A DNA stretch of 53,311 nt, taken from Palleronia salina (GTDB lineage Bacteria; Pseudomonadota; Alphaproteobacteria; Rhodobacterales; Rhodobacteraceae). The translations under genes were made by a program, and so were the position numbers. The stretch is taken from contig NZ_FQZA01000017.1 of the NCBI RefSeq assembly GCF_900141995.1, positions 1 to 53,311 on the forward strand. The letters are read 5' to 3'. Below, piece after piece: positions 31,491-46,504 of the stretch (its first letter is position 1; each line of letters begins with the position of its first letter). The notes under the pieces are model-generated. The model searched no databases, was not told the origin of the DNA, and saw only the letters and a list, made by a program, of their open reading frames with translations.

Positions 31491-32636
31491 ATGAGGAAAG
31501 ATCTTGGACTGGCGTCGGAAGAGCGGCGCAATTTCCTGAAACTCGCGACGACCGGCAGTTTCACCGCCGCGCTGGTCGCGGGGGCGGGCGGTATGCTCTG
31601 GTCGTCCGAGGCCGCAGCCCAGACCGCGCAGGAGGAGCGCGCGCGGGAAGAGGCGGCCGAGCACACCATGACGCTGGCCACCGCCTACGTTCTCGGCGCC
31701 TCGCGCAGCTACCCGATCATGCAGCTGGACCTGAAGGAAAACATCCAGAACGCCACGGCCGGGAAGGTCTACGTCAAGCTGGCCCCGGGCGGGCAACTGG
31801 GCGCGGGCGGCGCGCTGGCCCAGGGCGTGCAAAGCGGCACGATCCAGTGCGCGCAGCACTCGCTGTCGAACTTCGCCCCCTTCGCCAGCGCGGTGGACCT
31901 GATCAACCTTCCGTATTTCTGCGGCTCGAACCAGCGCTTCACCAACCTGGTGACGTCGGACGCGTGGAAATCCGAGGTGCACCCCAAGATCGAAAGCTCG
32001 GGCTTCAAGGCGCTGTTCTATGTGGTCATTGATCCGCGCGTCGTTGCCATGCGGCAGGGCGGCGCCGGGCCGGTCCTGACCCCCGGTGACCTGGCGGGCG
32101 TGAAGTTCCGCGTGCCGGGCAGCCAGATGCTGCAACAATACTACCGGATGGTGGGCGCCAACCCGACCCCCGTGGCCTGGGGCGAGACGCCGTCGGCGAT
32201 CAAGCAGGGCGTGGCCGACGCGCTCGACCCGTCGGTGGGCGCGCTGTACGTGTTCGGCTTCAAGGACATTCTCAGCCACGTGACCTTCACGCAGGCCGTG
32301 CCGGACAGTCAGGTCTACTCGGTCAACCTCGAGTGGTTCAACAGCCTGCCCTCGGACGTGCAGATGGGCATCGAATGGGCGGGCGAGATGACCGCGCACC
32401 AGAACCTCGCCAAGGTGCCGTCGGCCCGCGCCCACGCCATGGCCGAGCTCGAGAAGTCGGGCGTCCAGTTCCATTCGCTCAACGACGACCAACTGGCCGA
32501 ATGGCAGGAGGCCGGAGGCTACCAGCGCAGCGAGTGGGACGAGTTCAAGACCGAGCTTGCCGGGTCGATGGAGACGTTCACCAAGCTGGAAGAAGCCGCG
32601 GGCACCATGGGCAAGTACTACGTCCACGACGCCTGA
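31491..32636 (+). CDS. TRAP transporter solute-binding protein, probable DHPS uptake (HpsK-like)
   Basis: The 381-residue DctP-type protein carries a twin-arginine signal (ERRNFLK followed by a hydrophobic stretch and AAAQ), so it is exported folded. The mature part shows the DctP features LDLKENIQNATAGKV and GGQLGAGGALAQGVQSG at the ligand-binding side and GVKFRVPGSQM around the conserved arginine that binds an acid group. It would deliver an anionic substrate to the two membrane subunits that follow. The catabolic genes downstream point to 2,3-dihydroxypropane-1-sulfonate (DHPS) as ligand. A good GGGAGGA precedes the ATG. Confidence 0.85.
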   Translation: MRKDLGLASEERRNFLKLATTGSFTAALVAGAGGMLWSSEAAAQTAQEERAREEAAEHTMTLATAYVLGASRSYPIMQLDLKENIQNATAGKVYVKLAPGGQLGAGGALAQGVQSGTIQCAQHSLSNFAPFASAVDLINLPYFCGSNQRFTNLVTSDAWKSEVHPKIESSGFKALFYVVIDPRVVAMRQGGAGPVLTPGDLAGVKFRVPGSQMLQQYYRMVGANPTPVAWGETPSAIKQGVADALDPSVGALYVFGFKDILSHVTFTQAVPDSQVYSVNLEWFNSLPSDVQMGIEWAGEMTAHQNLAKVPSARAHAMAELEKSGVQFHSLNDDQLAEWQEAGGYQRSEWDEFKTELAGSMETFTKLEEAAGTMGKYYVHDA

Positions 32637-32766: not shown

Positions 32767-33282
32767 ATGTCCCGCATCCTGTCCGAGCTGAACCGGAACG
32801 CCGAAAGGTGGCTGCTGCTGGTTTTCTACGTGATGCTCGTCGCGACGATGTCGATCGAGGTGCTGCGGCGCGAGCTGCTGTCCTACTCGTCCATCTGGGG
32901 CGAGGAGATCGTGCGCTACAGCTTCATCTACCTCGCCTGGATCGGCGCCGCCGCCGCGGTGAAGGAGCGGGGGCACATCCGCATCGTCGTGCTGATGCAG
33001 TATGTCGGGCCGAGGGTGAAGGCGCTTCTCTACATCTTCGGCGACCTGGTGATGCTCGGGGTGTCCTTCATCGCGCTCTACTACTCGTATGAAACGGCGC
33101 ACGTGGCCGCCAAGTTCGGCAACGTGACCCACGGGCTGCGCATCGGGCAGGTCTGGTTCCTGGCCGCCGTGCCAATCGGCTTCTCGCTGGTGGTGCTGCG
33201 TCTCATCCAATCGCTGATCCGCGACATTCGCGACCTTCGTGACGGCAGGCCCGTCTACGAGGGCGACAAGCTGTTCGACTGA
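32767..33282 (+). CDS. TRAP transporter small membrane subunit (HpsL/DctQ-like)
   Basis: The 171-residue protein has four predicted helices and the DctQ signatures SSIWGEEIVRYSFIYLAWIGAA and VKERGHIRI. ATG 32767 is chosen because AAGGAGG (32755-32761) stands directly before it; an in-frame ATG 33 bases upstream has no site. It scaffolds the large subunit encoded 10 bases after its stop. Confidence 0.9.
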   Translation: MSRILSELNRNAERWLLLVFYVMLVATMSIEVLRRELLSYSSIWGEEIVRYSFIYLAWIGAAAAVKERGHIRIVVLMQYVGPRVKALLYIFGDLVMLGVSFIALYYSYETAHVAAKFGNVTHGLRIGQVWFLAAVPIGFSLVVLRLIQSLIRDIRDLRDGRPVYEGDKLFD

Positions 33283-33292
33283 GGAGGACGTC

Positions 33293-34624
33293 ATGCTCTG
33301 GCAACAAATGGGCGCCCAGACGGTCGAGCTCGGCTGGGATTTCTACGGCCCGATCCTTCTGTTCGTCTTCCTCGTGGCGCTGGCGGTGCCGGTCTGGGCG
33401 GCGATCGGTGCGGCGGCCAGCCTGATGCTGGTCTGGTCCGGCGCGCTGCCGCTGGACCTGGTGGGTAAGAAGCTGTTCTCGGGCATCGACGCCTTCGCGC
33501 TGACGGCCGTGCCGCTGTTCATCCTGACGGGCGACGTGCTGGTGCGCACGGGCCTGTCGCGCAAGTTCCTGGACGTGGCCGAGGCGCTGACGCAGTTCGC
33601 CAAGGGCGGCTTCGGCTCGCCCACGGTGCTGGTCTGCGGCATGTTCGCCGCGATCTCGGGCTCGGACGCGGCGGGCGCGGCGGCGGTGGGGCGCATGACC
33701 ATCGACCGGCTGGTCGAAAGCGGCTACCCGCGCCCCTATGCCTGCGCGCTGGTGGCCGCGGGCGCCTGCACCGGCATCCTGATCCCGCCTTCGATCGCGT
33801 ATATCATCATCGGCCTCGTGCTGGGGATCTCGGTGTCGACGCTGTTCCTGGCGGCGGTCATCCCCGGGCTGGCGATCCTGATCTCGATCCTGGCCACCAA
33901 CATCATCATGAACCGCCTCTACGGCTGGGAGGGGGGCGGCAATATCGGCGCGGGCGAGTATTTCCGGCGGCTGGGAACGTCGCTGAAATCCGGCTGGTAT
34001 GCCTTCATCGTGCCCGGCATCATCTTCTACGGCATCTTCTCGGGCCGGCTGACGCCGACCGAGGCGGGCGCCACGGCGGTCGTCGTGACGATCATCATGG
34101 GCTTTATCCTCGGCACGCTGAAGCTGTCGGATTTCCCGGCGATGCTGGTCAGCTCGGCCAAGGTCAACGGCGTCATCCTGCCCATCATCGCCTTCTCGAT
34201 CCCGCTGGCCGAGGCGCTGGCGATCATCGGGGTGCCGCAGGGTTTCGTCGCCGTGGCCACCGGCGTCAGCGACGAGCCCTGGGTTCTGATCCTGATGATG
34301 ATCGCCATCCTGATCGCCTCGGGCTGCGTGATGGAGACGACGCCCAACATCGTGATCCTGGCGCCGATCCTTAAGCCGTTGGCCGATAATATCGGCATGA
34401 ACGAGATCCAGTTCTGCATCATGATGATCACCGCGCTGGGGGTGGGGTTCATCACGCCGCCGCTGGGGCTCAACCTGTTCGTGGTCGCCGGGCTGACGGG
34501 CGAGTCGATCCTGAAGATCGCCTATCGCGCGATCCCCTTCGTGCTGTTCATGCTGCTGGTCACGCTGCTGATCGGCTTCGTACCCGCGATCTCGACCACG
34601 TTCCTTCCCGAGATCTACAAATAG
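33293..34624 (+). CDS. TRAP transporter large membrane subunit (HpsM/DctM-like)
   Basis: The 443-residue protein has about twelve hydrophobic helices. It contains the DctM blocks FFAISGSDAAGAAAVG-like (here MFAAISGSDAAGAAAV) and CTGILIPPSIAYIIIG, and the C-terminal GVGFITPPLGLNLFV. It is the sodium-driven transport subunit of the system. GAGGAGG overlapping the previous stop supports ATG 33293. In contrast to the TRAP large subunit at 41781-43826 it has no C-terminal extension. Confidence 0.92.
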   Translation: MLWQQMGAQTVELGWDFYGPILLFVFLVALAVPVWAAIGAAASLMLVWSGALPLDLVGKKLFSGIDAFALTAVPLFILTGDVLVRTGLSRKFLDVAEALTQFAKGGFGSPTVLVCGMFAAISGSDAAGAAAVGRMTIDRLVESGYPRPYACALVAAGACTGILIPPSIAYIIIGLVLGISVSTLFLAAVIPGLAILISILATNIIMNRLYGWEGGGNIGAGEYFRRLGTSLKSGWYAFIVPGIIFYGIFSGRLTPTEAGATAVVVTIIMGFILGTLKLSDFPAMLVSSAKVNGVILPIIAFSIPLAEALAIIGVPQGFVAVATGVSDEPWVLILMMIAILIASGCVMETTPNIVILAPILKPLADNIGMNEIQFCIMMITALGVGFITPPLGLNLFVVAGLTGESILKIAYRAIPFVLFMLLVTLLIGFVPAISTTFLPEIYK

Positions 34625-34634
34625 GAGACGTCCG

Positions 34635-35942
34635 ATGGTGCGCGAATACCTGAAGAAAGCCACACTCACCTCGCAAAGCGATGCCGGCGAGACCCAGGCC
34701 ATCGTGCGCGGTATCCTCGACGACATCGAAGCAGGCGGTGATGCAGCCGCGCTGGAATACGCGGCCAAGTTCGACAAGTACGACGGCAACGTGCTGCTGA
34801 CCGACGACGAGATCGCCGCCGCCATCGCCCAGGTGCCCGAGCGGCTGAAGCGCGACATCGATTTCAGCCATGCCAACGTGAAACGCTTCGCCGAGGCGCA
34901 GAAGAAGACCGTCGCCAATTTCGAGACCGAGGTGCTGCCGGGCCTGATCGCGGGGCAGAAGGCGATCCCGGTGAAGGCGGCGGGCTGCTACGTGCCCGGA
35001 GGGCGCTACAGCCATATCGCGTCGGCAATCATGACGGTGACCACCGCCAAGGTCGCGGGCTGCAAGCACATCGTCGCCTGTTCCCCGCCGCGTCCGGGCG
35101 TCGGCATCGCGCCGGCCATCGTCTATGCCGCGCATATCTGCGGCGCCGACAGGATCCTGGCCATGGGCGGGGTGCAGGGCGTGGCGGCGATGACCTTCGG
35201 CCTGTTCGGGCTGCCCAGGGCCAACATCCTCGTCGGGCCCGGCAACCAGTTCGTGGCCGAGGCCAAGCGCATCCTTTTCGGCCGGGTGGGCATCGACATG
35301 TTCGCAGGCCCCACCGACAGTCTTGTCCTGGCCGACAAGACCGCCGATCCCGAGGTGGTGGCGGTGGACCTGGTGGGGCAGGCCGAGCATGGCTACAACT
35401 CGCCCGTCTGGCTGGTGACGGACGACCGAGGCGTCGCCGAGACGGTGATGAAGCGCGTGCCCGAGCTCATCGAGGAGCTGCCCGAGCTCAACCGCGACAA
35501 CGCCCGCGCGGCCTGGCGCGACTATGCCGAGGTGATCCTGTGTCCCGACCGCGAGGACATGGCCGCGACGTCGGACGCCTACGCGCCCGAGCACCTGACC
35601 GTGCAGGCGGCGGACCTCGACTGGTGGCTGGACCGGCTGGAATGCTACGGCTCGCTGTTCCTGGGCGAGGAGACGACCGTGGCCTTCGGCGACAAGGCGT
35701 CGGGCACCAACCACGTGCTGCCCACAAGCGGCGCGGCGAACTACACCGGGGGCCTGTCGGTCCACAAGTACATGAAGATCGTCACCTGGCAGCGGTCCAC
35801 CAAGGAAGGCGCAAAGCCGGTGGCCGAGGCCACGGCGCGCATCTCGCGGCTTGAAGGGATGGAGGGGCACGCCCGCACCGCCGATATACGACTGAGGAAA
35901 TACTTCCCGAACGAAACCTTCGACCTGACGGCCGAGGGCTGA
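34635..35942 (+). CDS. hpsN: Sulfopropanediol 3-dehydrogenase (HpsN, histidinol dehydrogenase family)
   Basis: The 435-residue protein has the histidinol-dehydrogenase fold: VPGGRYSHIASAIMT, GPGNQFVAEAKR, GPTDSLVLAD, and the zinc ligands in GQAEHGYN and NHVLPTSGAANYTGGLSVH. It is not placed in a histidine operon but between a TRAP importer and sulfolactate genes, as HpsN is in Roseobacter DHPS clusters. HpsN oxidises the terminal alcohol of (S)-DHPS in two NAD-linked steps to (R)-sulfolactate. TAGGAG precedes ATG 34635. Confidence 0.9.
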   Translation: MVREYLKKATLTSQSDAGETQAIVRGILDDIEAGGDAAALEYAAKFDKYDGNVLLTDDEIAAAIAQVPERLKRDIDFSHANVKRFAEAQKKTVANFETEVLPGLIAGQKAIPVKAAGCYVPGGRYSHIASAIMTVTTAKVAGCKHIVACSPPRPGVGIAPAIVYAAHICGADRILAMGGVQGVAAMTFGLFGLPRANILVGPGNQFVAEAKRILFGRVGIDMFAGPTDSLVLADKTADPEVVAVDLVGQAEHGYNSPVWLVTDDRGVAETVMKRVPELIEELPELNRDNARAAWRDYAEVILCPDREDMAATSDAYAPEHLTVQAADLDWWLDRLECYGSLFLGEETTVAFGDKASGTNHVLPTSGAANYTGGLSVHKYMKIVTWQRSTKEGAKPVAEATARISRLEGMEGHARTADIRLRKYFPNETFDLTAEG

Positions 35943-35945
35943 TCG

Positions 35946-36704
35946 ATGGCGGTGCCCGGCCTTTTCGACGTGCGGGGCAAGGTGGCCCTGGTCACCGGCG
36001 CAAGCTCGGGGCTGGGCCGCCGGGCCGCCGACACGTTGTCAGGGGCAGGGGCGAACGTCGTGGGCGTCGCCCGCCGTCGCGAGGCGCTCGGGGACTGGCA
36101 GGCCGAGGCCCCCGAGGCCCGCGCCGCCGTGGCCGGCGACGTGGCCGCGCGTGCGGATTTCGATGACCTGGTCGCGCGGATCCGCGCGCCTTTCGGCGCG
36201 CCCGAGATCATCGTGAATGCCGCCGGCCTCAATACCCGGCAGGCGGCCGACGACGTGACGGCCGAGGGCTGGGACGCGACGCTGGCGGTGAACCTGTCGG
36301 CGCCGTTCTTCCTGGCGCAAGCCTTCGCCCCCGGGATGCGGGCAAAGGGCTGGGGCCGGATCGTCAATTTCGCGTCGCTGCAATCCTTCCGGGCGTTTCC
36401 GGGCGGCATCGCCTACGGCGCGTCCAAGGGCGGGGTGGCGCAGCTGACCCGCGCCATGGCGCAGGCGTGGTCGGGCCATGGCATCACCGCCAACGCCATC
36501 GGTCCGGGCTTTTTCCCGACCGAGCTGACGGCGGCGGTGTTCGACGACCCGGAACGCGCCGCCCGCAACGCGGCGCAGACCTGCGCGGGGCGCAACGGGC
36601 GGCCCGAGGACATGGACGGGCCGCTGCTGTTCCTCTGTTCCGACGCATCGGCTTATGTGACCGGACAGATCCTGATGGTCGACGGGGGGTTCACCGCGAA
36701 ATGA
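35946..36704 (+). CDS. hpsO: Short-chain dehydrogenase, probable (R)-DHPS 2-dehydrogenase (HpsO-like)
   Basis: The 252-residue classical SDR has the cofactor motif TGASSGLG, the NAAG-type segment VNAAGLNTRQA, and catalytic Tyr and Lys in YGASKGG. It closes with GQILMVDGGFTAK. It starts three bases after the hpsN stop. In DHPS catabolism HpsO oxidises the secondary alcohol of the (R) isomer to a ketone which HpsP reduces to the (S) isomer. The assignment to HpsO rests on gene order. Confidence 0.82.
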   Translation: MAVPGLFDVRGKVALVTGASSGLGRRAADTLSGAGANVVGVARRREALGDWQAEAPEARAAVAGDVAARADFDDLVARIRAPFGAPEIIVNAAGLNTRQAADDVTAEGWDATLAVNLSAPFFLAQAFAPGMRAKGWGRIVNFASLQSFRAFPGGIAYGASKGGVAQLTRAMAQAWSGHGITANAIGPGFFPTELTAAVFDDPERAARNAAQTCAGRNGRPEDMDGPLLFLCSDASAYVTGQILMVDGGFTAK

Positions 36705-37666
36705 AAGCTTTGGTTTATCAAGGTCCCGAGGAGCTGGTCTATCGCACCGTGTCGACGCCCCACGTGGCGCATGGGGCACAGGTCGTGCACATCCAGTCCT
36801 CGGGGATCTGCGGGTCGGACATGCACGCCTCACTGGGCCACGACGAACGGCGCCCGCCGCCACTGATCCTGGGCCACGAGGTCTCGGGCGTCACCGATGG
36901 CGGGCGGCGGGTCACCGTCAACCCGCTGGTCGGCTGCGGCGTCTGCCGGGCCTGCCAGTCGGGGCGCGACAACCTGTGTCCCAACCGGCAGATCATCTCG
37001 ATGCCGCCGCGCGAGGGTGGCTTTGCCGAGGCCGTGGCGCTGCCCCCCGAGAACCTCGTCGACATTCCCGACACGCTCAGCTTCGACCAGGCCGCGCTGG
37101 CCGAGCCCATTGCCTGCGGCTGGCACGCGGTGCGGCTGGCGCGCGAGGCAGGCGGCAGCGCGCCCGCGCTGGTCATCGGCGGCGGGGCCATCGGCGTCGG
37201 CGCGGCGCTGTGCCTCGCCGCGCAGGGCGTGGACGAGATCACGCTGGTCGAACCGTCGGTCGCGCGGCGCGACTACCTCGCCCGTCACGTGGGGATCGAT
37301 GCGCTGGACGCGGCCGCGCTGCACGACACGCCGCGCTTCAACCTGGTCGTCGATGCCGTGGGCATCGCCGCCACCCGCGCCATGGCGTCCAGCCACGTGC
37401 GCCCCGGCGGTGTGATCGCCCATATCGGGCTGGGCTCGGCCGAAGGCGGGCTCGATATCCGGCGCATGACGCTGCAGGAAATCACCTTCATCGGCACCTA
37501 TACCTACACCTCCGCCGACTTCCGCGCGACCGTCGCGGCCATGGGCGACGGGCGGCTCGGGCGGCTCGACTGGACCGAGACCCGGCCGCTGGCCGACGGC
37601 GCCCGCGCCTTCAGCGATATCCGCGCGGGCACCGTCGCCGCGCCCAAGATCATTCTGAAACCGTAA
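36701..37666 (+). CDS. hpsP: Zinc-dependent dehydrogenase, probable DHPS epimerising step (HpsP-like)
   Basis: The 321-residue protein starts in an ATGA overlap with hpsO. It is a medium-chain zinc alcohol dehydrogenase with catalytic-zinc residues in GICGSDMH and GHEVSG, four structural-zinc cysteines in CGVCRACQSGRDNLC, and the NAD motif GGGAIGVGAA. With HpsO it would interconvert DHPS isomers through the ketone. By recall this is the expected neighbour in hpsNOP clusters. Confidence 0.84.
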   Translation: MKALVYQGPEELVYRTVSTPHVAHGAQVVHIQSSGICGSDMHASLGHDERRPPPLILGHEVSGVTDGGRRVTVNPLVGCGVCRACQSGRDNLCPNRQIISMPPREGGFAEAVALPPENLVDIPDTLSFDQAALAEPIACGWHAVRLAREAGGSAPALVIGGGAIGVGAALCLAAQGVDEITLVEPSVARRDYLARHVGIDALDAAALHDTPRFNLVVDAVGIAATRAMASSHVRPGGVIAHIGLGSAEGGLDIRRMTLQEITFIGTYTYTSADFRATVAAMGDGRLGRLDWTETRPLADGARAFSDIRAGTVAAPKIILKP

Positions 37667-37685
37667 CCTCCCGAAGGAGACTGAA

Positions 37686-37976
37686 ATGGCCGAAATACCC
37701 CATCTTCTGGTGCACGAGCACGACGACAATGTGGGCGTCGTCGTCGTCGAGGGCCTGACCGCGGGCACCGACATGCTGTGCTGCGTCACCCACGACAATT
37801 CCACCTTCCGCCTGAAGGCCGAGGCCGACGTGCCCATCGGCCACAAGATCGCCCTGAAGGATTTCAAGGCGGGCGACACGGCCATGAAATACGGCGAGGA
37901 CATCGGCAAGATCATCGCCGACATCCCCAAGGGCCACCACGTCCACACCCACAACTGCAAGACCAAGCGCTGGTAA
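37686..37976 (+). CDS. suyA: (R)-sulfolactate sulfo-lyase small subunit
   Basis: The 96-residue protein is a single SAF-type domain ([33 protein letters not shown]) ending [13 protein letters not shown], as in SuyA. It pairs with SuyB; together they resemble the N- and C-terminal parts of altronate dehydratase. The enzyme removes sulfite from (R)-sulfolactate to give pyruvate and needs iron. GAAGGAGA precedes the ATG. Confidence 0.92.
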
Positions 37977-38022
37977 GACGCGCGGCCGCCCCGGCGGCGC
38001 GCCATCCCGAGAGGACACTGAT

Positions 38023-39204
38023 ATGGCATCGAAATATTCCAACATGACCGTCAAGGCCTACCGGCGCGAGAACGGTCGCGTGGGCGTGCGCAACCACGTC
38101 ATCATCCTGCCCGTCGACGATATCTCGAACGCCGCCTGCGAGGCGGTGGCGAACAACGTCAAGGGCACGCTGGCCCTGCCGCACGCCTATGGCCGCCTGC
38201 AATTCGGCGAGGATCTCGACCTGCATTTCCGCACCATGATCGGCACCGGGGCGAACCCCAACGTCGCCGCCGTGGTCGTCATCGGGATCGAGCCGGGCTG
38301 GACCAGGCGCATCGCCGACGGCATCCGCGAGACCGGCAAGCCCGTGGCCGAGTTCAGCATCGAGCAGAAGGGCGATTTCGAGACGATCCGCGCCGCGAGC
38401 TGGGCCGCAAAGGAGTTCGTGCACAAGACGACCGAGTACCAGCGCGAAGAGGTCTCGATCTCCGAGCTTTGGGTCTCGACCAAGTGCGGCGAAAGCGACA
38501 CGACCACCGGCCTTGGATCCTGCCCGACGGTCGGCAACATGTACGACAAGCTGCTGCCCGAGGGCATCACCGGCTTCTTCGGCGAGACCTCCGAGATCAC
38601 GGGGGCCGAGCACATCTGCAAGACGCGCGCCATCAACGAGGAAGTGGGCGAGCGGTGGTACAATATGTGGAAGGCCTACCAGGACGACGTCATCTTCGCG
38701 CACCAGACCGATGACCTTTCCGACAGCCAGCCCACCAAGGGCAATATCGAGGGCGGCCTGACCACCATCGAGGAAAAGGCGCTGGGCAACCTCGAGAAGA
38801 TCGGCCGCACGTCGCAATATATCGACATCCTCGACCCGGCCGAACGGCCGAACTCGGGTCCCGGCCTTTACTTCATGGACAGCTCCTCGGCGGCGGCGGA
38901 ATGCGTGACGCTGATGGCTGCGGGCGGTGCCGTGATCCACACCTTCCCCACGGGGCAGGGCAACGTGGTGGGCAACCCCATCGTGCCGGTAATCAAGATC
39001 ACCGCAAACCCGCGCACGGTGCGCACCATGGGCGAGCACGTGGACGTGGACGTGAGCGGTATCCTGCGGCGCGAAATGACCATCGACGAGGCGGGCGACG
39101 CGCTGATCGACAGCATCTGCCGCACCGCCAACGGGCGCTTCACCGCGGCCGAGGCGCTGGGTCACCGCGAATTTTCCATGACCAAGCTCTATCGCAGTGC
39201 TTGA
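38023..39204 (+). CDS. suyB: (R)-sulfolactate sulfo-lyase large subunit
   Basis: The 393-residue protein belongs to the UxaA/altronate dehydratase large-subunit family. Typical blocks are [15 protein letters not shown]-like (here [12 protein letters not shown]), [19 protein letters not shown] and [14 protein letters not shown]. Cysteines at the CGESD and GSCPT positions could hold the metal. It carries out the carbon-sulfur bond cleavage of the pathway. A strong hairpin follows the stop. Confidence 0.92.
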
Positions 39205-39212
39205 TCCCGCGG

Positions 39213-39242
39213 GCGGTCGCCCCCAAACGCGGGGGCGACCGC
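39213..39242 (+). terminator. Strong hairpin after suyB
   Basis: GCGGTCGCCCCC (39213-39224) pairs perfectly with GGGGGCGACCGC (39231-39242) around AAACGC. The stem is 12 pairs; no clear T-tract follows (AACAGACCTT). It could partly terminate transcription or protect the hps-suy message from 3' decay before the lower-demand genes. Confidence 0.7.
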
Positions 39243-39264
39243 AACAGACCTTACGGATGACCCG

Positions 39265-40278
39265 ATGCCCGACCCGATCCGCCTTGGCCTTGCCGAGGCC
39301 ACCGACCTCCTGACCCAAGTCTTCGCCGCCTGCGGCTGCACGCCGGCCGCCGCCGTGTCGGTGGCCAGCGCGCTGGTCGCGGCCGAGGCCGAGGGGCAGT
39401 CGGGCCACGGGTTCAGCCGCGTGGCGGACTATGCCGCTCAGGCGCGCAGCGGAAAGGTCGTCGCCGACGCGACGCCGGTCCTGGAGCGTGCCGACGGAAC
39501 GGCGCTGACCGTCGATGCGGGCTTCGGCTTCGCCTATCCGGCGCTAGACCTGGCGCTGACCGCGCTGGTCGAAGCCGCGAATACCCACGGCACCGCCTCG
39601 GTCGCGATCCGCAATTCGCACCATTGCGGCGCGCTGTCGGTGCAGGTCGAGAAGATCGCGCAGGCCGGGCTGGTGGGCCTGATGGTCGCCAACGCGCCCG
39701 CCGCCATCGCGCCCTGGGGCGCGCGCACGCCGATCTTCGGCACCAATCCCATCGCCTTCGCCGCGCCGCGCGCCGTGGGCGCCGCGCCCTTGGTCATAGA
39801 CCTTTCGCTGTCGAAGGTGGCGCGCGGCAAGGTCATGCATGCCCGCAAGTCCGGCCAGCCGATCCCCGAGGGTTGGGCCTTCGACTCCGATGGCAATCCC
39901 ACCACCGATCCCGAGGCCGCGCTGGCCGGGACTATGGCCCCCATCGGCGGCGCGAAGGGCACCGCGCTTGCGCTGATGGTCGAAGTGCTGGCCGCGACGC
40001 TGACGGGCGCCAATGCCTCGCGCGAGGCCGGGTCGTTCTTCACCGCGGATGGCGAGAGGCCCGGCACGGGGCAGTTCCTGCTGGCGCTGCGCCCGGGCGA
40101 TCCGGGCGGGTTCGCGGACCGGCTCGAGTCGCTTCTGACCGACATCGCCGCGCAGGAGGGCGCCCGTCTGCCCGGCACGCGCCGCGCCACCGCCATCGCC
40201 CGGGCCGAGGCCGAGGGCATCGACGTGCCCGCCGCCTACGTGGACGAGGCGCGCGCGCTGGCCAGCAGCCATGGATGA
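39265..40278 (+). CDS. comC: Ldh2/malate dehydrogenase family oxidoreductase, probable (R)-sulfolactate dehydrogenase (ComC-like)
   Basis: The 337-residue protein belongs to the Ldh2/MdhG family: SGHGFSRVADYA near residue 50, the catalytic-histidine block IRNSHHCGAL and GTNPIAFAAP, and GAKGTALALMVE late in the protein. The family interconverts 2-hydroxy and 2-keto acids with NAD(P). In suy clusters ComC reduces sulfopyruvate to (R)-sulfolactate, allowing (S)-sulfolactate or sulfopyruvate to enter the same route. No partner SlcC gene is present in this window. Confidence 0.82.
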   Translation: MPDPIRLGLAEATDLLTQVFAACGCTPAAAVSVASALVAAEAEGQSGHGFSRVADYAAQARSGKVVADATPVLERADGTALTVDAGFGFAYPALDLALTALVEAANTHGTASVAIRNSHHCGALSVQVEKIAQAGLVGLMVANAPAAIAPWGARTPIFGTNPIAFAAPRAVGAAPLVIDLSLSKVARGKVMHARKSGQPIPEGWAFDSDGNPTTDPEAALAGTMAPIGGAKGTALALMVEVLAATLTGANASREAGSFFTADGERPGTGQFLLALRPGDPGGFADRLESLLTDIAAQEGARLPGTRRATAIARAEAEGIDVPAAYVDEARALASSHG

Positions 40279-41314
40279 GACGGCGGGAAACTCGCGCCTC
40301 GCGGCGCTGCAGGACCGGGCGCGCGTGGTCTTTCCGGGCCTGCTGGTCGCGCTGCTGATCGCGCTGGCGTCGAAATTCGTGTCGGAGCATTACGGCGCGC
40401 CCGCGATGCTTCTGGCGCTGCTTTTCGGGATGTCGTTGAATTTCCTCGGGACCGAGGATCGCACGCGTCCCGGCGTCGAGTTCGGGGCGCGGCAGGTGCT
40501 GCGCCTCGGCGTGGCCCTTCTGGGCGCACGGATCAGCGTCGAGCTGTTGTCGAGCCTCGGCGCAGCCGTGGTTCTTCTGGTCGTCGCCGGGGTGCTGCTG
40601 ACCATTGGTTTCGGGATGCTGTCGTCGCGCATCTTCGGGTTCCGCTACCGCTTCGCGTTCCTGTCGGCCGGAGCCGTGGCGATCTGCGGCGCGTCGGCGG
40701 CCATGGCCATCGCCGCCGTCCTGCCGCGCGACGACCGGTCGGAACAGCGGCTGATCTTCACCGTGGTGGGCGTGACGCTTCTCTCGACGCTGGCGATGAT
40801 CGTCTATCCCATCCTCGCGCAGGCCATGGGCATGAGCGACCGCATCACCGGCATCTTCATCGGCGCGACCGTCCACGACGTGGCGCAGGTCGTCGGCGCC
40901 GGTTTTTCCGTCAGCCAGGAGGCCGGGGATACCGCGACCCTGGTCAAGCTGCTGCGCGTGGTCATGCTGGCCCCGGTCGTGCTGGTCACGACGCTGGTGG
41001 TCCGCTCGGTCGCCGGGGCGGAACCGGGGGAGGGCAAGCGCCCGCCGCTGGTGCCGGGCTTCGTGCTGGGGTTCATCGCGCTGGCCGTGCTCGCATCTCT
41101 CGGCGCCATCCCGGCGCCAGTGGTCGACGCGGCGTCCACGGCCTCGGGCTGGCTGCTTCTGGCCGCGATCGGGTCGGTGGGGATGAAGACCATGCCGAAG
41201 GACATCATGAACGTGGGCGCGCCCGCGGCCCTGTTTCTCGTGGCCGAAACCGCCTTCCTGGCGGTCTTCATCCTGCTGGGCCTGACGGTCCTGACCGGAT
41301 CGGCGCCCGGCTGA
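40271..41314 (+). CDS. YeiH/UPF0324 membrane protein, probable sulfite/sulfate exporter (SuyZ-like)
   Basis: The 347-residue protein overlaps the dehydrogenase gene by eight bases and has about ten helices. The family blocks LRLGVALLGARIS, GASAAMAIAAVLP and GATVHDVAQVVGAG are visible. COG2855-type proteins occur in sulfolactate and cysteate clusters, where they are proposed to export the sulfite or sulfate released. No sulfite dehydrogenase is encoded nearby, so export may be the main way of removing sulfite here. Confidence 0.8.
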   Translation: MDETAGNSRLAALQDRARVVFPGLLVALLIALASKFVSEHYGAPAMLLALLFGMSLNFLGTEDRTRPGVEFGARQVLRLGVALLGARISVELLSSLGAAVVLLVVAGVLLTIGFGMLSSRIFGFRYRFAFLSAGAVAICGASAAMAIAAVLPRDDRSEQRLIFTVVGVTLLSTLAMIVYPILAQAMGMSDRITGIFIGATVHDVAQVVGAGFSVSQEAGDTATLVKLLRVVMLAPVVLVTTLVVRSVAGAEPGEGKRPPLVPGFVLGFIALAVLASLGAIPAPVVDAASTASGWLLLAAIGSVGMKTMPKDIMNVGAPAALFLVAETAFLAVFILLGLTVLTGSAPG

Positions 41315-41339
41315 ATCCCTGCGCAAGGAGGCATCGCAG

Positions 41340-41753
41340 ATGTATGGCAATATCCTGATCGCCGTGGCGCTGGACCACGAAGAGCTGGTTCCCGGCAAGA
41401 TCGCCCTGGCCCGAAGGCTTCTGGCCGATGGGGGGCGCATCACGCTTCTGACGGTGCTGGAGAACGTGCCGGGCTTCGTGGCCGAGTTCGTGGACATGAA
41501 GCCTGAGAACCACCTGCGCGCGAAGGTCCTGCAGCGGCTCGAGGCGGCCCATGGCGGCGCGCCGGATATCAAGGTCGCGGTCGAGACCGGCAAGTCGGGC
41601 GTGGTGATTTCCCACTATGCCGAAGCGCAGGGCACCGACCTCATCATCGTCGGATCGCACAAGCCCGGGCTACAGGACTACTTCCTCGGCTCGACCGCTG
41701 CGCGGGTGGCGCGGCGTGCGCCGTGCTCGGTCATGATCTTCCGCGAGGATTGA
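41340..41753 (+). CDS. UspA-type universal stress protein
   Basis: The 137-residue single-domain protein has the Usp ATP-binding end LIIVGSHKPGLQDYFLG followed by STAARVARRAPCSVM. AAGGAGG lies upstream of ATG 41340. Usp proteins often accompany TRAP transporters (TeaD being the studied case), where they bind ATP and may tune uptake. Being last in the sulfonate operon, it could play that role for the hpsKLM-like system; this is inference. Confidence 0.87.
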   Translation: MYGNILIAVALDHEELVPGKIALARRLLADGGRITLLTVLENVPGFVAEFVDMKPENHLRAKVLQRLEAAHGGAPDIKVAVETGKSGVVISHYAEAQGTDLIIVGSHKPGLQDYFLGSTAARVARRAPCSVMIFRED

Positions 41754-41780: not shown

Positions 41781-43826
41781 CTAGTTGCCGAAGTTCAGGC
41801 CAGGCGTGGCGTCGCTCTCGCTGTCCTGCGGGTCCGCGTCGCCGCCGCTCGTGTCTCCACCGCTGCCGCCGAAGTTGAACCCACCGGTCGCGTCGCCGCG
41901 GGTCCCGGCGTCCTCCGCACCGCCGGTGCTGTCGCCGGAGGTCTCGCCGCCACCCCCACCGAAGTTGAAGCCACCATCGCCGCTGCTGTCGGCCCCACTG
42001 GACGACGTGCCTCCGCCGGACGCCACGCTGTCGCCGTTCGACGCGCCGCCGCCGAAGTTGAACCCGCCGGTGGCATCATTGCCGCCACCCGAAGACTCCC
42101 CGCCGCCGGAGCCGCTGCCGCCACCGAAATTGAACCCGCCGGTCGCGTCGTTCGAGCCGCCCGACGAAGTGCTGCTGCCGCCGCCCCCGCCGCCGCCGAA
42201 GTTCAGCCCGCCGGTGGGATCACCGCTGGGGGCCGGGGCCGATTGGCGCGCGGCTTCGCGGTCGGCCTTGTAGTGGGTGACAAGTGACGGCACCGAGATC
42301 ACCAGGATGATCAGCAGGAAGTTGATCGCGATGAAGGGCAGCACGCCCTTGTAGATCTCGTTGGTGCGGATGCGCGGCAAGGTCTGGCCGGTCTGCTTGT
42401 CCTGCCAGTCCTCGGTCGGCGCCACGGATCGCAGGTAGAACAGCGCGAAGCCGAAGGGCGGCGTCAGGAACGAGGTCTGCAGGTTCATCGACAGGATGAC
42501 GCCGAACCAGATCAGGTCGATGCCCAGCGTGTCGGCCACCGGCGCCAGCAGCGGTACCAGGATGAACGCGATCTCGAAGAAGTCGAGGAAGCATCCCAGG
42601 ATAAAGACCACGATCGTCACGACAACGAGGAAGCCGAACTGGCCACCGGGCAGGCCCAGCAGCAGCTCTTCCAGCCAGACCTGCCCGTTGACGCCGTAGA
42701 AGGTCAGGCCGAAGACCCGCGCGCCGATCAGGATGAACAGCACGAAGGCGCTGAGCTTGGCCGTCGCCTCGACCGCCGAGCGCAGCATGGGGAAGGTCAG
42801 CCGCCGCTTGCCGATGGCCAGCAGCAACGCGCCCACCGCGCCCATGGCGCCGCCCTCGGTCGGCGTCGCGATCCCGAGGAAGATCGTGCCCAGCACCAGG
42901 AAGATCAGGGCCAGCGGCGGGATCAGGACGATGACCACCGTCTCGGCCAGGCGCGACAGGAGGTTCAGGTTGAAGAAGCGGTTAGCCAGCGCGATGCCGT
43001 AGCAGATCAGCACCGAGAAGGCCGAGGCGAAGACGATCCGCGTTGCATTCGCGTACTCGGTGAACAGCACCCACATCCCGAGGTAGTAGAGCACCACCGA
43101 CAGCACCGCCATGACGACCAGCGACAGGACGCCCGAGCCCAGCTTGCGTTCTTCCGGGGGAAGCGCCGGGACGGCGTCGGGCTTGATGAAGGTCAGAAGC
43201 AGGATGTAGGCGCAATAGGCCGCGATGATGATGAGCGCCGGATAGATCGCGCCCAGGTACATGTCGCCGACGCTGACGCCCAGCTGGTCGGCCATGACGA
43301 TCAGCACCAGGCTGGGCGGGACGATCTGAGCCAGGGTGCCCGCAGCCGCGATGGTGCCGGTGGCGGCGGGCGCATCGTAGGAATAGCGCTGCATGATCGG
43401 GAGCGAGATCAGGCCCATGGCGATGACCGACGCCGCCACGACGCCGGTCGTCGCCGCCAGAAGCGCGCCAACCAGCACCACCGCGAAGGCAACGCCGCCG
43501 CGCAGGGGGCCGAACAGCTGGCCCACCGTGTCGAGCAGGTCCTCGGCCATGCCGGATCGCTCAAGTATCAGGCCCATGAAGGTGAAGAACGGGATCGCCA
43601 ACAGCGTGTCGTTCGACATGATCCCGAAAACCCGCTCAGGCATCGCGCGAAGAAGCGGCCAGAACAGGTTGATTTCGTTCGAGTAATCGGAAAGCCCCAC
43701 GCCAACCACGAAGTAGAACAGCCCGCCCGCGGCAAGGGTCAGCGCCACCGGGTAGCCGAGGATCAGCATGCCCATCACCGAGATGAACATGATCGGGGCG
43801 AGGTTGTGTGCGATAAGCTCGATCAT
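41781..43826 (-). CDS. TRAP transporter large membrane subunit with an FNFG-repeat tail (TakM-like)
   Basis: The 681-residue protein has two parts. Residues 1-528 are a DctM-type transporter with about 12-14 helices (TGVVAASVIAMGLISLPIM, GTIAAAGTLAQIVPPSLVLI, FLTPPFGFALFYLRSVAP) and an internal variable region, larger than the 430-residue norm but as seen in the TakM/mannitol-type branch. Residues 529-681 are a glycine/serine/aspartate-rich tail with four FNFG (near 565, 589, 620 and 650) and two LNFG (near 541 and 677) motifs at 22-31 residue spacing. The tail has almost no lysine, arginine or aromatic residues other than phenylalanine, so it should be disordered and acidic. It pairs with the DctQ gene upstream and the TakP-like binding protein. 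Confidence 0.9.
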   Translation of the reverse strand: MIELIAHNLAPIMFISVMGMLILGYPVALTLAAGGLFYFVVGVGLSDYSNEINLFWPLLRAMPERVFGIMSNDTLLAIPFFTFMGLILERSGMAEDLLDTVGQLFGPLRGGVAFAVVLVGALLAATTGVVAASVIAMGLISLPIMQRYSYDAPAATGTIAAAGTLAQIVPPSLVLIVMADQLGVSVGDMYLGAIYPALIIIAAYCAYILLLTFIKPDAVPALPPEERKLGSGVLSLVVMAVLSVVLYYLGMWVLFTEYANATRIVFASAFSVLICYGIALANRFFNLNLLSRLAETVVIVLIPPLALIFLVLGTIFLGIATPTEGGAMGAVGALLLAIGKRRLTFPMLRSAVEATAKLSAFVLFILIGARVFGLTFYGVNGQVWLEELLLGLPGGQFGFLVVVTIVVFILGCFLDFFEIAFILVPLLAPVADTLGIDLIWFGVILSMNLQTSFLTPPFGFALFYLRSVAPTEDWQDKQTGQTLPRIRTNEIYKGVLPFIAINFLLIILVISVPSLVTHYKADREAARQSAPAPSGDPTGGLNFGGGGGGGSSTSSGGSNDATGGFNFGGGSGSGGGESSGGGNDATGGFNFGGGASNGDSVASGGGTSSSGADSSGDGGFNFGGGGGETSGDSTGGAEDAGTRGDATGGFNFGGSGGDTSGGDADPQDSESDATPGLNFGN
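41784..42242 (-). repeat. Six-copy degenerate repeat encoding the FNFG/LNFG tail
   Basis: On the plus strand the unit reads roughly CCGAAGTTGAACCCGCCGGT, with imperfect copies near 41788, 41871, 41961, 42054, 42125 and 42199, separated by variable glycine/serine/aspartate codons. Synonymous differences between units suggest the motif is kept at protein level and is not a recent DNA amplification. Confidence 0.8.
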
Positions 43827-43830
43827 GGCC

Positions 43831-44406
43831 TTACCCCCGGTTTCCGGCTTCTTTCGCCGCGGGCGGCAGGTCGTCTTCCTTCTGCGGCGGATCGGGCAGG
43901 TCCAGATGGCCGGTCAGCATCGCGGCCTTCTTGATGATCTCCGACACGCCCTGCGCCGCGAGCACGATGAACCCCAGCAGCACCCAGATCTTGGCGGGCC
44001 AGCGGATCAGCCCCCCCGCGTTCGAGGACTGTTCGCCGCTGGTGTAGGACGACACGAAGAACGGCCAGGCGAGATAGACCATCAGAACCGCGAAGGGCAT
44101 CAGAAACAGGATGTGGCAAATCAGGTCGATCCGGACCCGGGCGCGCGGGCTCAGCCGCTGCGACAGCACGTCGACGCGCACATGCTCGTCCTCGCGCAGG
44201 GTCCAGGCGGCGCACATCATGAAGACCGCGCCGAACAGGTACCACTGCGCCTCGAGCCAGGCATTGGACGAGATGTTCAGGGTTTTGCGGATGATCGCGT
44301 TGCCCGCCGAGACCAGGACGGCGACGAGTATGAGCCAGGCGAAAGATCGGCCGATGATGCCGTTCACGCGGTCGATGGCACGGGCGATCCCCAGCAGTCC
44401 GGACAT
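43831..44406 (-). CDS. TRAP transporter small membrane subunit (TakQ-like)
   Basis: The 191-residue protein has four helices and the DctQ hallmarks NAWLEAQWYLFGAVFMMCAAW and LREDEHVRVDVL. A charged C-terminal tail (PDPPQKEDDLPPAAKEAG) follows the last helix. GGGAGGAG precedes the ATG. It ends four bases before the large-subunit gene, so both are cotranscribed, divergently from takP. Confidence 0.9.
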   Translation of the reverse strand: MSGLLGIARAIDRVNGIIGRSFAWLILVAVLVSAGNAIIRKTLNISSNAWLEAQWYLFGAVFMMCAAWTLREDEHVRVDVLSQRLSPRARVRIDLICHILFLMPFAVLMVYLAWPFFVSSYTSGEQSSNAGGLIRWPAKIWVLLGFIVLAAQGVSEIIKKAAMLTGHLDLPDPPQKEDDLPPAAKEAGNRG

Positions 44407-44609: not shown

Positions 44610-45722
44610 ATGGATCGTCGTCGTTTTCTGAAGACGGCCACGCTGGGCAGCGCGGGGGCCACGGGCCTTGCCGCACCGGCCATCGCACAGGAGAATCCGC
44701 AGATTAGCTGGCGGATGACATCATCGTTCCCCAAGTCGCTGGACACCATCTACGGCGGCGGGGCGGACGTGGCGCAATACGTGCGCGAAGCCACCGACGG
44801 GGCCTTCGACATCCAGGTCTTCGCGGGGGGCGAGATCGTCCCCGGCCTGCAGGCCGCCGACGCGGTCCAGAACGGCACGGTCGAGATGTGCCACACCGCC
44901 GCCTACTACTACGTCGGCAAGTCGCCGACCTGGGCGCTGGGCGGCGTGATCCCCTACGGCCTGAACAACCGGGGCATGAACGCCTGGCTGTATTACGGCG
45001 GTGGACTGGACCAGCTGAACGAGTTTTACGGCAAGAACGGCCTGCACTACCTGCCCGCCGGCAATACCGGCGCGCAGATGGGTGGCTGGTTCCGCAACGA
45101 GATCAACAGCCTGGCCGACATGGAAGGCCTGCAGATGCGCATCGGTGGCCTCGCGGGCCGGGTGATGGAGCGCGTGGGCGTGGTACCGCAGCAGGTCGCG
45201 GGCGGTGATATCTACCCATCGCTGGAGCGTGGCACGATCGACGCCGCCGAATGGGTCGGCCCCTACGATGACCAGAAGCTCGGCTTCTACCAGGTCGCGC
45301 CCTATTACTACTATCCCGGCTGGTGGGAGGGGAACCTGACCCTCTGCTGCTTCGTGAACCAGGAGCAGTGGGACGGTCTGCCCGACCGCTACAAGGCGTT
45401 GCTGCAAACCGCGAGCCGCGCCGCCAATACCGAGATGATGGCGGAATACGACTACAAGAACCCCACCGCCCTGCGCGAGCTCGTGCAGAACGGCGCGCAG
45501 CTGCGTCGCTATCCCGACGAGGTGCTGAATGCCACCTACGACGCGGCGATGGAGCTTTATTCCGAGCTGCGCGAAAGCGAGCCCGACTGGGGCCCGATCT
45601 ACGACAGCATGATGGCGTTCCAGGCCGAGCATTTCCTGTGGCAGCAGGTGTCGGAGTCGACCTTCGCCCAGTTCATGCAGGCCAAGCAGAGCGCGGGCGA
45701 ACTGCCGGCCCAGCAGCAGTAA
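44610..45722 (+). CDS. takP: TRAP solute-binding protein for 2-oxoacids (TakP-like)
   Basis: The 370-residue protein has a twin-arginine signal (DRRRFLKTA...AIAQ). The mature part closely recalls Rhodobacter TakP: SFPKSLDTIYGG, NTGAQMGGWFRNEIN, RIGGLAGRVMERVGVVPQQ, GGDIYPSLERGTIDA and EWVGPYDD. TakP is a dimeric periplasmic receptor for pyruvate and related 2-oxo acids. The membrane genes are on the opposite strand across 203 bases that must hold both promoters. GGGAGAG supports ATG 44610. Its stop is followed by the best terminator in the window. Confidence 0.9.
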   Translation: MDRRRFLKTATLGSAGATGLAAPAIAQENPQISWRMTSSFPKSLDTIYGGGADVAQYVREATDGAFDIQVFAGGEIVPGLQAADAVQNGTVEMCHTAAYYYVGKSPTWALGGVIPYGLNNRGMNAWLYYGGGLDQLNEFYGKNGLHYLPAGNTGAQMGGWFRNEINSLADMEGLQMRIGGLAGRVMERVGVVPQQVAGGDIYPSLERGTIDAAEWVGPYDDQKLGFYQVAPYYYYPGWWEGNLTLCCFVNQEQWDGLPDRYKALLQTASRAANTEMMAEYDYKNPTALRELVQNGAQLRRYPDEVLNATYDAAMELYSELRESEPDWGPIYDSMMAFQAEHFLWQQVSESTFAQFMQAKQSAGELPAQQQ

Positions 45723-45820: not shown

Positions 45821-46504
45821 ATGAAACGATCCCGCATCAACCAGATCATGGCCGAGGCCGACGCGATGATCTCGCGCCACGGCTTCACCCTGCCGCCCTT
45901 CGCGCGCTGGTCGCCGGAAACCTTCCGCGACCGGGCCGATGCGGCCGCCCACGTCATCGACAGCCGCTGCGGCTGGGACATCACGGATTACGGGCAGGGC
46001 GATTTCGACGGGATGGGCCTGTTCCTGTTCACCCTGCGCAACGGCCTCCTGTCCGATCTGCAGGGCGGTGGTGGCATGTGCTACGCCGAGAAACTGCTGA
46101 TCTCGCGCCGCGACCAGCTCAGCCCGCTGCACACCCATGTCATCAAGGCCGAGGACATCATCAACCGGGGCGGCGCGACCCTGGCGGTGCAGCTTTACGG
46201 GTCGGACGACGCGGGCAACCTGGCGCGCGACCGCGGGGGCAGGGTGCTTTGCGACGGCATCGCCCGCGACTTTGCTGCCGGCGAGGTGCTGACCTTCGCG
46301 CCGGGCGAAAGCATCACCCTGCGTCCCGGCGACTGGCACGCCTTCTGGGGCGAGGGCGGCGACGTTCTGATCGGCGAGGTCAGCACGGTCAACGACGACG
46401 AGACCGACAACATCTTTGCCGAGCCCATCGGCCGGTTCTCGGAGATCGAGGAAGACGAGCCCCCGGTCCACCTACTGGTCAGCGATTACGCCCGCTGGCT
46501 GTGA
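45821..46504 (+). CDS. D-lyxose isomerase (cupin type, YdaE-like)
   Basis: The 227-residue protein matches the cupin D-lyxose ketol-isomerase family: opening MKRSRINQIM, and metal ligands His104 and His106 in SPLHTHVIKAED with Glu111 and His173 in GDWHAFWGEG. It interconverts D-lyxose and D-xylulose (and D-mannose/D-fructose) using Mn2+. GGAAGGA precedes the ATG. The following SDR gene, 70 bases on, is probably cotranscribed; a pentitol or lyxose route is the obvious common theme. Confidence 0.88.
   Translation: MKRSRINQIMAEADAMISRHGFTLPPFARWSPETFRDRADAAAHVIDSRCGWDITDYGQGDFDGMGLFLFTLRNGLLSDLQGGGGMCYAEKLLISRRDQLSPLHTHVIKAEDIINRGGATLAVQLYGSDDAGNLARDRGGRVLCDGIARDFAAGEVLTFAPGESITLRPGDWHAFWGEGGDVLIGEVSTVNDDETDNIFAEPIGRFSEIEEDEPPVHLLVSDYARWL

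What the first reader, a model, noticed from the sequence alone, without database searches (positions are those of the whole stretch)
41784..42242. TRAP transporter large subunit with a nucleoporin-like FNFG-repeat tail
Residues 529-681 of the TakM-like protein form a Gly/Ser/Asp-rich, nearly lysine/arginine-free tail with four FNFG and two LNFG motifs evenly spaced at 22-31 residues; the last motif is at the extreme C-terminus. FxFG spaced by polar linker is the pattern of nuclear-pore FG proteins, which form selective, phase-separating meshes. I know of no role for such a tail on a membrane transporter. Synonymous variation between units suggests selection on the protein motif. It could tether the transporter, gather the binding protein, or form a dense phase at the membrane face.
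Basis: partly seen in the sequence, partly recalled or inferred. Interest (0 to 1): 0.8.

Follow-up and report, generated by a model that had tools for sequence, protein, structure and literature searches.

The report
Disordered tail on a nutrient importer
A bacterial nutrient importer carries a floppy tail of evenly spaced sticky motifs on the outer face of its membrane; such tails turn up across a whole branch of importers that work with a two-headed binding protein, so the tail may be a leash that holds that protein close.

Summary
The tail is real: residues 529-681 of a DctM/TakM TRAP subunit (window 41784-42242, minus strand) hold four FNFG and two LNFG motifs. It is not a private expansion: 154 distinct relatives read from its branch carry a C-terminal tail (17-179 residues) and one M placed as their sister does not, while 11 of 11 measurable other DctM proteins of the same genome stop at the last helix. 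The core matches PpSiaM end to end, and PpSiaM is reported N-out/C-out, so the tail is periplasmic by homology, where the binding protein docks. It is predicted disordered. The nucleoporin-like FNFG form is one derived sticker, in 10 of 134 tails (the window's genus, apparently Palleronia, and Loktanella atrilutea); relatives use DLSQPPSFN, LGLPPL, PNFG or LGAP. In those ten tails 81 of 81 Phe sit in motifs, while spacers evolve fast. Tailed M subunits go with TakP-type binding proteins, known as stable dimers; the sister binding proteins checked pair with tailless M. Best explanation: a periplasmic sticker-and-spacer leash that captures the TakP dimer near its docking site. The leash function is inferred, not shown; clustering and anchoring remain open. 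Nothing listed in nine full-text searches was seen to describe the tail.

The parts
41784..43826 (-). TakM/DctM large TRAP permease subunit, 681 aa (stop codon 41781-41783)
42252..43826 (-). membrane core, residues 1-525; residues 9-524 cover the PpSiaM chain 1-427; last membrane helix 488-511
41784..42242 (-). disordered tail, residues 529-681, six [FL]NFG stickers; periplasmic by homology
   Evidence: (pLDDT under 50 for 539-681)
42195..42206 (-). sticker 1, LNFG (541-544)
42123..42134 (-). sticker 2, FNFG (565-568)
42051..42062 (-). sticker 3, FNFG (589-592)
41958..41969 (-). sticker 4, FNFG (620-623)
41868..41879 (-). sticker 5, FNFG (650-653)
41787..41798 (-). sticker 6, LNFG (677-680), followed by the final Asn
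43831..44406 (-). TakQ/DctQ small permease subunit, 191 aa
   Evidence: PF04290
44610..45722 (+). TakP-type solute-binding protein, 370 aa, divergent from Q and M; proposed partner of the tail
   Evidence: 2hzk/2hzl, deposited as SmoM, renamed TakP; 503 bits over residues 1-365

Best explanation
The tail is a periplasmic, intrinsically disordered 'sticker and spacer' leash of TakM-type TRAP large subunits. It hangs from the last membrane helix on the face where the substrate-binding protein docks. Its short hydrophobic motifs (FNFG here; DLSQPPSFN, LGLPPL, PNFG or LGAP in relatives) bind weakly and several at a time to the cognate TakP-type binding protein. TakP is a stable two-headed dimer, of which one head at a time would dock, so a leash would keep the dimer beside the transporter between delivery cycles and let the second head dock without escape. 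Shown here by computation: the tail is present through the clade, motifs are kept while spacers change, it is predicted disordered, and it goes with TakP. By homology to PpSiaM: it is periplasmic. Inferred: that the stickers bind TakP, and that this raises its local concentration.
For: Topology: model residues 9-524 align with the PpSiaM chain 1-427, and that M subunit is reported N-out/C-out (PMC9971032, passages); rare natural M-P fusions exist (PMC9352664, passages). Clade-wide: 134 of 134 distinct proteins from 139 loci have a tail of at least 18 residues, as do 20 of 21 further M subunits lacking the middle insert (17 or more residues); 154 distinct tailed proteins in all. In a tree of 97 rows the 81 tailed rows form one side of a branch (SH-aLRT 99). 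Constraint: in 10 FNFG-type tails, 81 of 81 Phe lie in an [FL]NF motif; over three species pairs 0 of 36 aligned motif codons changed the amino acid against 81 of 247 spacer codons. Partner: 66 of 80 named loci hold a TakP homologue (336 bits or more) on the stretch; of the other 14, three end at a contig end and 11 whole genomes were searched, of which 11 of 11 hold one. Where an M lay within 3.5 kb of a TakP-like gene (21 of 81 stretches), it was tailed in 10 of 11 with scores of 342 bits or more and in 0 of 10 with 300 or less. TakP is a stable dimer (Kd under 0.3 uM), and its authors propose that it stays bound to the membrane partner (PMC1839085, passages and Discussion). In HiSiaPQM the binding protein docks weakly, about 1 uM or weaker (PMC10942642, passages). 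A tether of this length would give low-millimolar effective concentration (crude polymer estimate), like the 4 mM quoted for OpuA (PMC11065425, passages).
Against: No binding of tail to TakP was tested or modelled; only single chains could be folded. Sticker chemistry differs widely between lineages while TakP stays similar, which is odd for a specific docking motif. M and TakP are inherited together, so their co-distribution may reflect descent rather than contact. Of 28 genomes with a TakP-like match of 340 bits or more but no tailed M, 7 gave no M at 1e-60 on closer search. 60 of 81 stretches around TakP-like genes had no M within 3.5 kb. The own genome has a TakP-like protein (283 bits, 42% identity) beside a tailless M. 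One M with a 342-bit partner has no tail (L199, the same gene in L271). Whole repeat units with their motif are gained or lost between species.
Confidence: 0.4

Rival explanations
1. Tail-to-tail cohesion: the stickers of neighbouring TakM molecules bind each other and gather transporters into a dense patch on the periplasmic face, as FG repeats cohere in nuclear pores (recalled).
For: FNFG stickers spaced by G/S/D linkers resemble cohesive FxFG repeats; six per chain in the window protein and in L047.
Against: Only 10 of 134 tails have two or more [FL]NF motifs; some relatives have tails of 17-25 residues with one or two possible stickers, too few for a mesh.
Confidence: 0.15
2. Anchor to the cell wall or another periplasmic or outer-membrane partner: the tail holds the transporter in place or near a porin.
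For: Periplasmic by homology and long (contour about 55 nm for 153 residues); a DLSxPP-like motif recurs in 52 of 134 tails.
Against: Tails of 17-25 residues in the same clade could hardly reach the wall. A partner gene other than TakP and TakQ was not searched for.
Confidence: 0.15
3. Regulatory or gating role on the transporter itself: the tail folds back on the periplasmic face of QM, keeps wrong binding proteins out, or tunes the elevator.
For: A juxtamembrane stretch such as VDPxTIKIEVP recurs in many tails, and the genome has many DctP-family proteins (11 matches to the window binding protein, itself included).
Against: AlphaFold models of the window protein and of an Ensifer relative leave the tail without confident structure.
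Confidence: 0.2
4. Little or no function: a tolerated low-complexity extension that grows by repeat slippage in GC-rich genomes.
For: The DNA is partly a tandem repeat (72-base unit, 2.5 copies); a sister species lacks one unit, and spacers change fast.
Against: Tail present in 154 proteins of the clade, absent only in sister-placed L199; Phe confined to motifs and no amino-acid change in aligned motif codons of three pairs.
Confidence: 0.1

Closest known systems
SiaQM TRAP transporters (PpSiaM 7qha/8b01, HiSiaQM 7qe5/8thi)
   Different: The PpSiaM chain ends where the tail begins; window TakM also has an insert of about 60 residues (two helices, 233-254 and 260-285) between the two repeats.
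TakPQM of Rhodobacter sphaeroides (TakP 2hzk/2hzl)
   Same: The window binding protein matches TakP from residue 1 to 365 (503 bits), the swapped C-terminal helix included.
   Different: The passages and Discussion seen of the TakP paper do not mention a tail on TakM; R. sphaeroides TakM itself was not read here.
Importers with covalently attached binding proteins (OpuA; M-P fusion TRAP of Acidaminococcus intestini)
   Same: Binding protein kept near its docking site by a flexible link; about 4 mM apparent concentration quoted for OpuA (fusion).
   Different: Here the link would be non-covalent and multivalent, and the partner is a separate protein.
FG nucleoporins (FxFG repeats)
   Same: Disordered chain with Phe-containing stickers spaced by polar linkers (nucleoporin features recalled).
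   Different: Bacterial, periplasmic, six stickers at most in the ten FNFG tails; FNFG is a derived form in one clade.

Membership tests
TRAP transporter large subunit (DctM, PF06808) | Match to the DctM profile above the curated cut-off | tested here: met
   317.7 bits against cut-off 23.8; TIGR00786 296.9 against 268.45
TRAP transporter large subunit (DctM, PF06808) | SiaM-like elevator fold | tested here: met
TRAP transporter large subunit (DctM, PF06808) | Neighbouring Q and P subunits | tested here: met
   DctQ and DctP families beside it
TakPQM type | TakP-type binding protein with C-terminal helix region | tested here: met
   2hzk 503 bits over residues 1-365
TakPQM type | Binds alpha-keto acids as a dimer | not testable with these tools
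   needs protein; reported for R. sphaeroides TakP
FG nucleoporin-like | Repeated FG motifs in a disordered chain | tested here: met
   six [FL]NFG; pLDDT under 50 for 539-681
FG nucleoporin-like | FG pattern conserved across the family of tails | tested here: not met
   10 of 134 tails with two or more [FL]NF
FG nucleoporin-like | Phase-separating, selective mesh | not testable with these tools
   needs protein
Transporter with fused binding protein | Binding protein on the same chain as M | tested here: not met
   only DctM found on the chain; TakP is a separate gene

The most novel reading that the evidence does not exclude
A whole branch of TRAP importers uses a non-covalent, multivalent, disordered periplasmic leash to keep a dimeric, two-headed binding protein at the transporter, with stickers that lineages swap (LGLPPL/DLSQPPSFN to FNFG). 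This would be a third way of supplying an importer, between free and fused binding proteins, and would give the TakP dimer a role.
Probability: 0.35. Interest if true: 0.8.

Novelty: new variant of a known kind. Interest (0 to 1): 0.58.

Why it matters
TRAP importers are a major route of organic-acid uptake in bacteria (recalled). Why TakP is a dimer was left open by its discoverers in 2007, and a 2024 paper says there are no data on the role of such dimers. A clade-wide tail on the matching membrane subunit, on the right face, makes a leash model directly testable by deletion and binding assays. It also shows sticker-and-spacer tails evolving in the periplasm, with an FG form arising in one bacterial clade.

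Tried and rejected
Private repeat expansion: rejected by clade-wide presence. Assembly artefact: rejected (other genomes). A genome-wide FNFG system: a DNA pattern for GFNFG in the own genome hit only the four copies here and one single copy in another ORF (L168); LNFG and other contexts were not covered by that pattern. A discrete clade by an E-value gap: I first drew this, but one search showed that the cut-off of 1e-120 (and only three candidates scored per genome) had hidden M subunits lacking the middle insert, whose matches split in two; the gap is not used. Folding of the juxtamembrane stretch: not seen in the Ensifer model, where 522-526 and 530-596 are below pLDDT 50. Binding-protein columns that differ between partners of tailed and tailless M were listed (27 positions, 77 against 11 sequences) but not placed on a structure. 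Length of the binding protein after window residue 345 does not separate the groups: median 21 (range 16-37, n 76) against 18 (range 11-24, n 11). Own-genome DctM controls: 11 loci whose alignment reached core position 515 or beyond end at most 2 residues past the place of core residue 525; L169, L171, L175 and L180 could not be measured that way, and L185 was a cut view of the gene in L186. Paper searches: 9 of 10 used; two returned nothing, one was swamped by unrelated words; only open-licence PMC papers are held.

Full report
OBSERVATION. The minus-strand ORF 41784-43826 encodes a 681-residue DctM protein. Its residues 529-681 (window 41784-42242) hold LNFG at 541 and 677 and FNFG at 565, 589, 620 and 650, spaced 24-31 residues, with one Arg, no Lys, and all ten Phe inside motifs. 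Shuffled tails gave 0.017 motifs on average and never more than 2 in 20,000 trials. DctQ lies directly upstream in the same direction (43831-44406) and a DctP-family binding protein is divergent (44610-45722, plus). The binding protein matches TakP of Rhodobacter sphaeroides (2hzk) with 503 bits from residue 1 to 365, so the system is of the TakPQM type.

HOW WIDESPREAD. Among 100 genomes (the own one included), 85 had DctM matches. The 21 best-matching loci (L001-L021) all carry tails, while nine more distant DctM proteins (L022-L030) end 6-10 residues after the aligned core. A scan of named genomes kept the best 80 of 587 relatives, chosen by likeness to a tailed query; 80 of 80 have tails. 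A draw of 398 genomes of the phylum gave 38 genomes with 39 matches at E 1e-120 or better, with three candidates scored per genome, and 39 of 39 have tails. After leaving out the repeated window protein and dropping identical ones, 139 loci give 134 distinct proteins: shortest tail 18, median 68, longest 179. A closer search of the 28 genomes that had a TakP-like match of at least 340 bits but no M found M subunits without the middle insert in 21; one locus each was read, and 20 of 21 are tailed, the exception being L199; 7 of 28 gave no M at 1e-60. So 154 distinct tailed proteins were read. In the own genome, 11 of 11 other DctM loci that could be measured stop at most 2 residues past the place of core residue 525; one of them lies in this window (33239-34621).

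EVOLUTION OF THE TAIL. In a quick tree of 147 rows (134 tailed, 13 tailless) the ten FNFG rows (nine of the window's genus, the window included, and Loktanella atrilutea) are one side of a branch (SH-aLRT 100), and their nearest relative, Mangrovicoccus (L052), has LGLPPL and DLSQPPSFN instead. The genus appears to be Palleronia, because L009, placed in the window's genus, encodes the same protein as P. marisminoris L046. By my own coarse pattern classes, 52 tails have DLSxPP-like motifs, 37 LGxP-like, 10 FNFG and 35 others. In a second tree of 97 rows (61 of the 134, the 21 insert-less, 15 tailless), with columns filled in at least 70% of rows, all 81 tailed rows lie on one side of one branch (99), and tailless L199 is their sister. 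Both trees are short searches and flag long branches. The simplest history is one gain of a tail and later swaps of stickers.

SELECTION. In the ten FNFG-type tails, 81 of 81 Phe are in [FL]NF motifs, and spacers hold 0-3 hydrophobic residues each. Spacer make-up drifts from G/S-rich (window) to P/E-rich (L009). Over three pairs (L001/L002, L001/L003, L005/L006), 0 of 36 aligned motif codons differ in amino acid against 81 of 247 spacer codons (Fisher p 2e-6, not corrected for descent); for L001/L002 the core has 3 non-synonymous and 44 synonymous differences, the spacers 20 and 16. Results that weaken this: the alignments are anchored by the motifs; 3 and 9 motif codons of the window protein fall in gaps against L002 and L003, so whole units come and go; the first motif letter is Leu or Phe; some last motifs lack the Gly (FNFN); and L004 has LNID where others align FNF. 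The confinement of every Phe to motifs does not depend on an alignment.

THE PARTNER. All 80 named loci have DctQ; 66 of 80 hold a TakP homologue of at least 336 bits on the stretch. Of the other 14, three end at a contig end (L071, L090, L098) and 11 were searched as whole genomes: 11 of 11 hold one (380 bits or more). In the phylum draw, 125 of 398 genomes have a TakP-like match at 1e-70, and all 38 genomes with a tailed M are among them. I then read 81 stretches around TakP-like genes across the score range, chosen by hand from the list (and L165). In 21 an M lay within 3.5 kb: with scores of 342 bits or more, 10 of 11 M are tailed; with 300 or less, 0 of 10 are. Several of these M are the same genes as (for instance L271 and L199, L266 and L157), and L281 and L288 are near-copies, so the rows are not independent. 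The 60 stretches without a nearby M say nothing on pairing. The tail thus follows the TakP branch of binding proteins. Because M and TakP descend together, this is association, not proof of contact.

MECHANISM. TakP is a helix-swapped dimer with dissociation constant below 0.3 uM, and its authors proposed that it stays more or less permanently at the membrane partner (PMC1839085, passages and Discussion). A 2024 paper says there are no data on the role of such dimers (PMC11065425, passages). The binding protein docks weakly in HiSiaPQM (about 1 uM or weaker; PMC10942642, passages). A leash of 68-179 residues would hold a bound partner at about 2-9 mM (crude polymer estimate). I therefore favour weak, multivalent capture of the TakP dimer. 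Shown by computation: presence, constraint, predicted disorder, association. By homology: side of the membrane. Inferred: binding and its benefit. Against it: sticker chemistry changes between lineages more than one expects of a specific docking motif; a 283-bit TakP-like protein in this genome lies beside a tailless M; and 7 of 28 genomes with a TakP-like match showed no tailed M.

NOVELTY. Nine full-text searches of open-licence PMC papers, seen as listings, with passages or sections of six papers read, showed no description of such a tail on a TRAP M subunit; most subscription papers are not held, and three of the nine searches gave nothing useful. The transporter is a known kind, the tail a variant that I found nowhere described. 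The nuclear-pore likeness is convergence of one clade's sticker, not kinship.

Noticed in passing
window 42972-43130 (TakM residues 233-285): An insert of about 60 residues (two predicted helices) between the two inverted repeats is present in the window TakM; it is absent in L021 and in the 21 loci L187-L207, 20 of which still have tails.
   Followed up: partly
window 44610-45722; L046 and L047: Binding proteins of the FNFG clade that were aligned have an extra C-terminal extension (window ...ELPAQQQ; L046 ...LLPAQISGAGSVGGGSAN; L047 ...LLPGQKTGGGN), Gly-rich in L046 and L047.
   Followed up: partly
L062, L074, L088, L111: Two TakP-like genes of over 470 bits stand in the same locus beside one TakQM; some genomes have up to five TakP-like matches at 1e-70, with at most five scored.
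   Followed up: no
   Followed up: no
window 31491-32633 and 33239-34621, plus: A second TRAP system (DctP and tailless DctM) followed by a histidinol-dehydrogenase-family gene at 34635-35939.
   Followed up: no
window 36467-41753 and about 45823-46504, plus: Genes that look like sugar-acid metabolism around the TRAP operon: zinc alcohol dehydrogenase, altronate/galactarate dehydratase family, malate/L-lactate dehydrogenase family, D-lyxose isomerase; also a YeiH-family transporter and a universal stress protein.
   Followed up: no
window 41785-42273, plus: An open frame of 162 codons runs opposite the tail; it mirrors the G-rich coding strand (Pro-rich), and no evidence for a gene was sought.
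   Followed up: no
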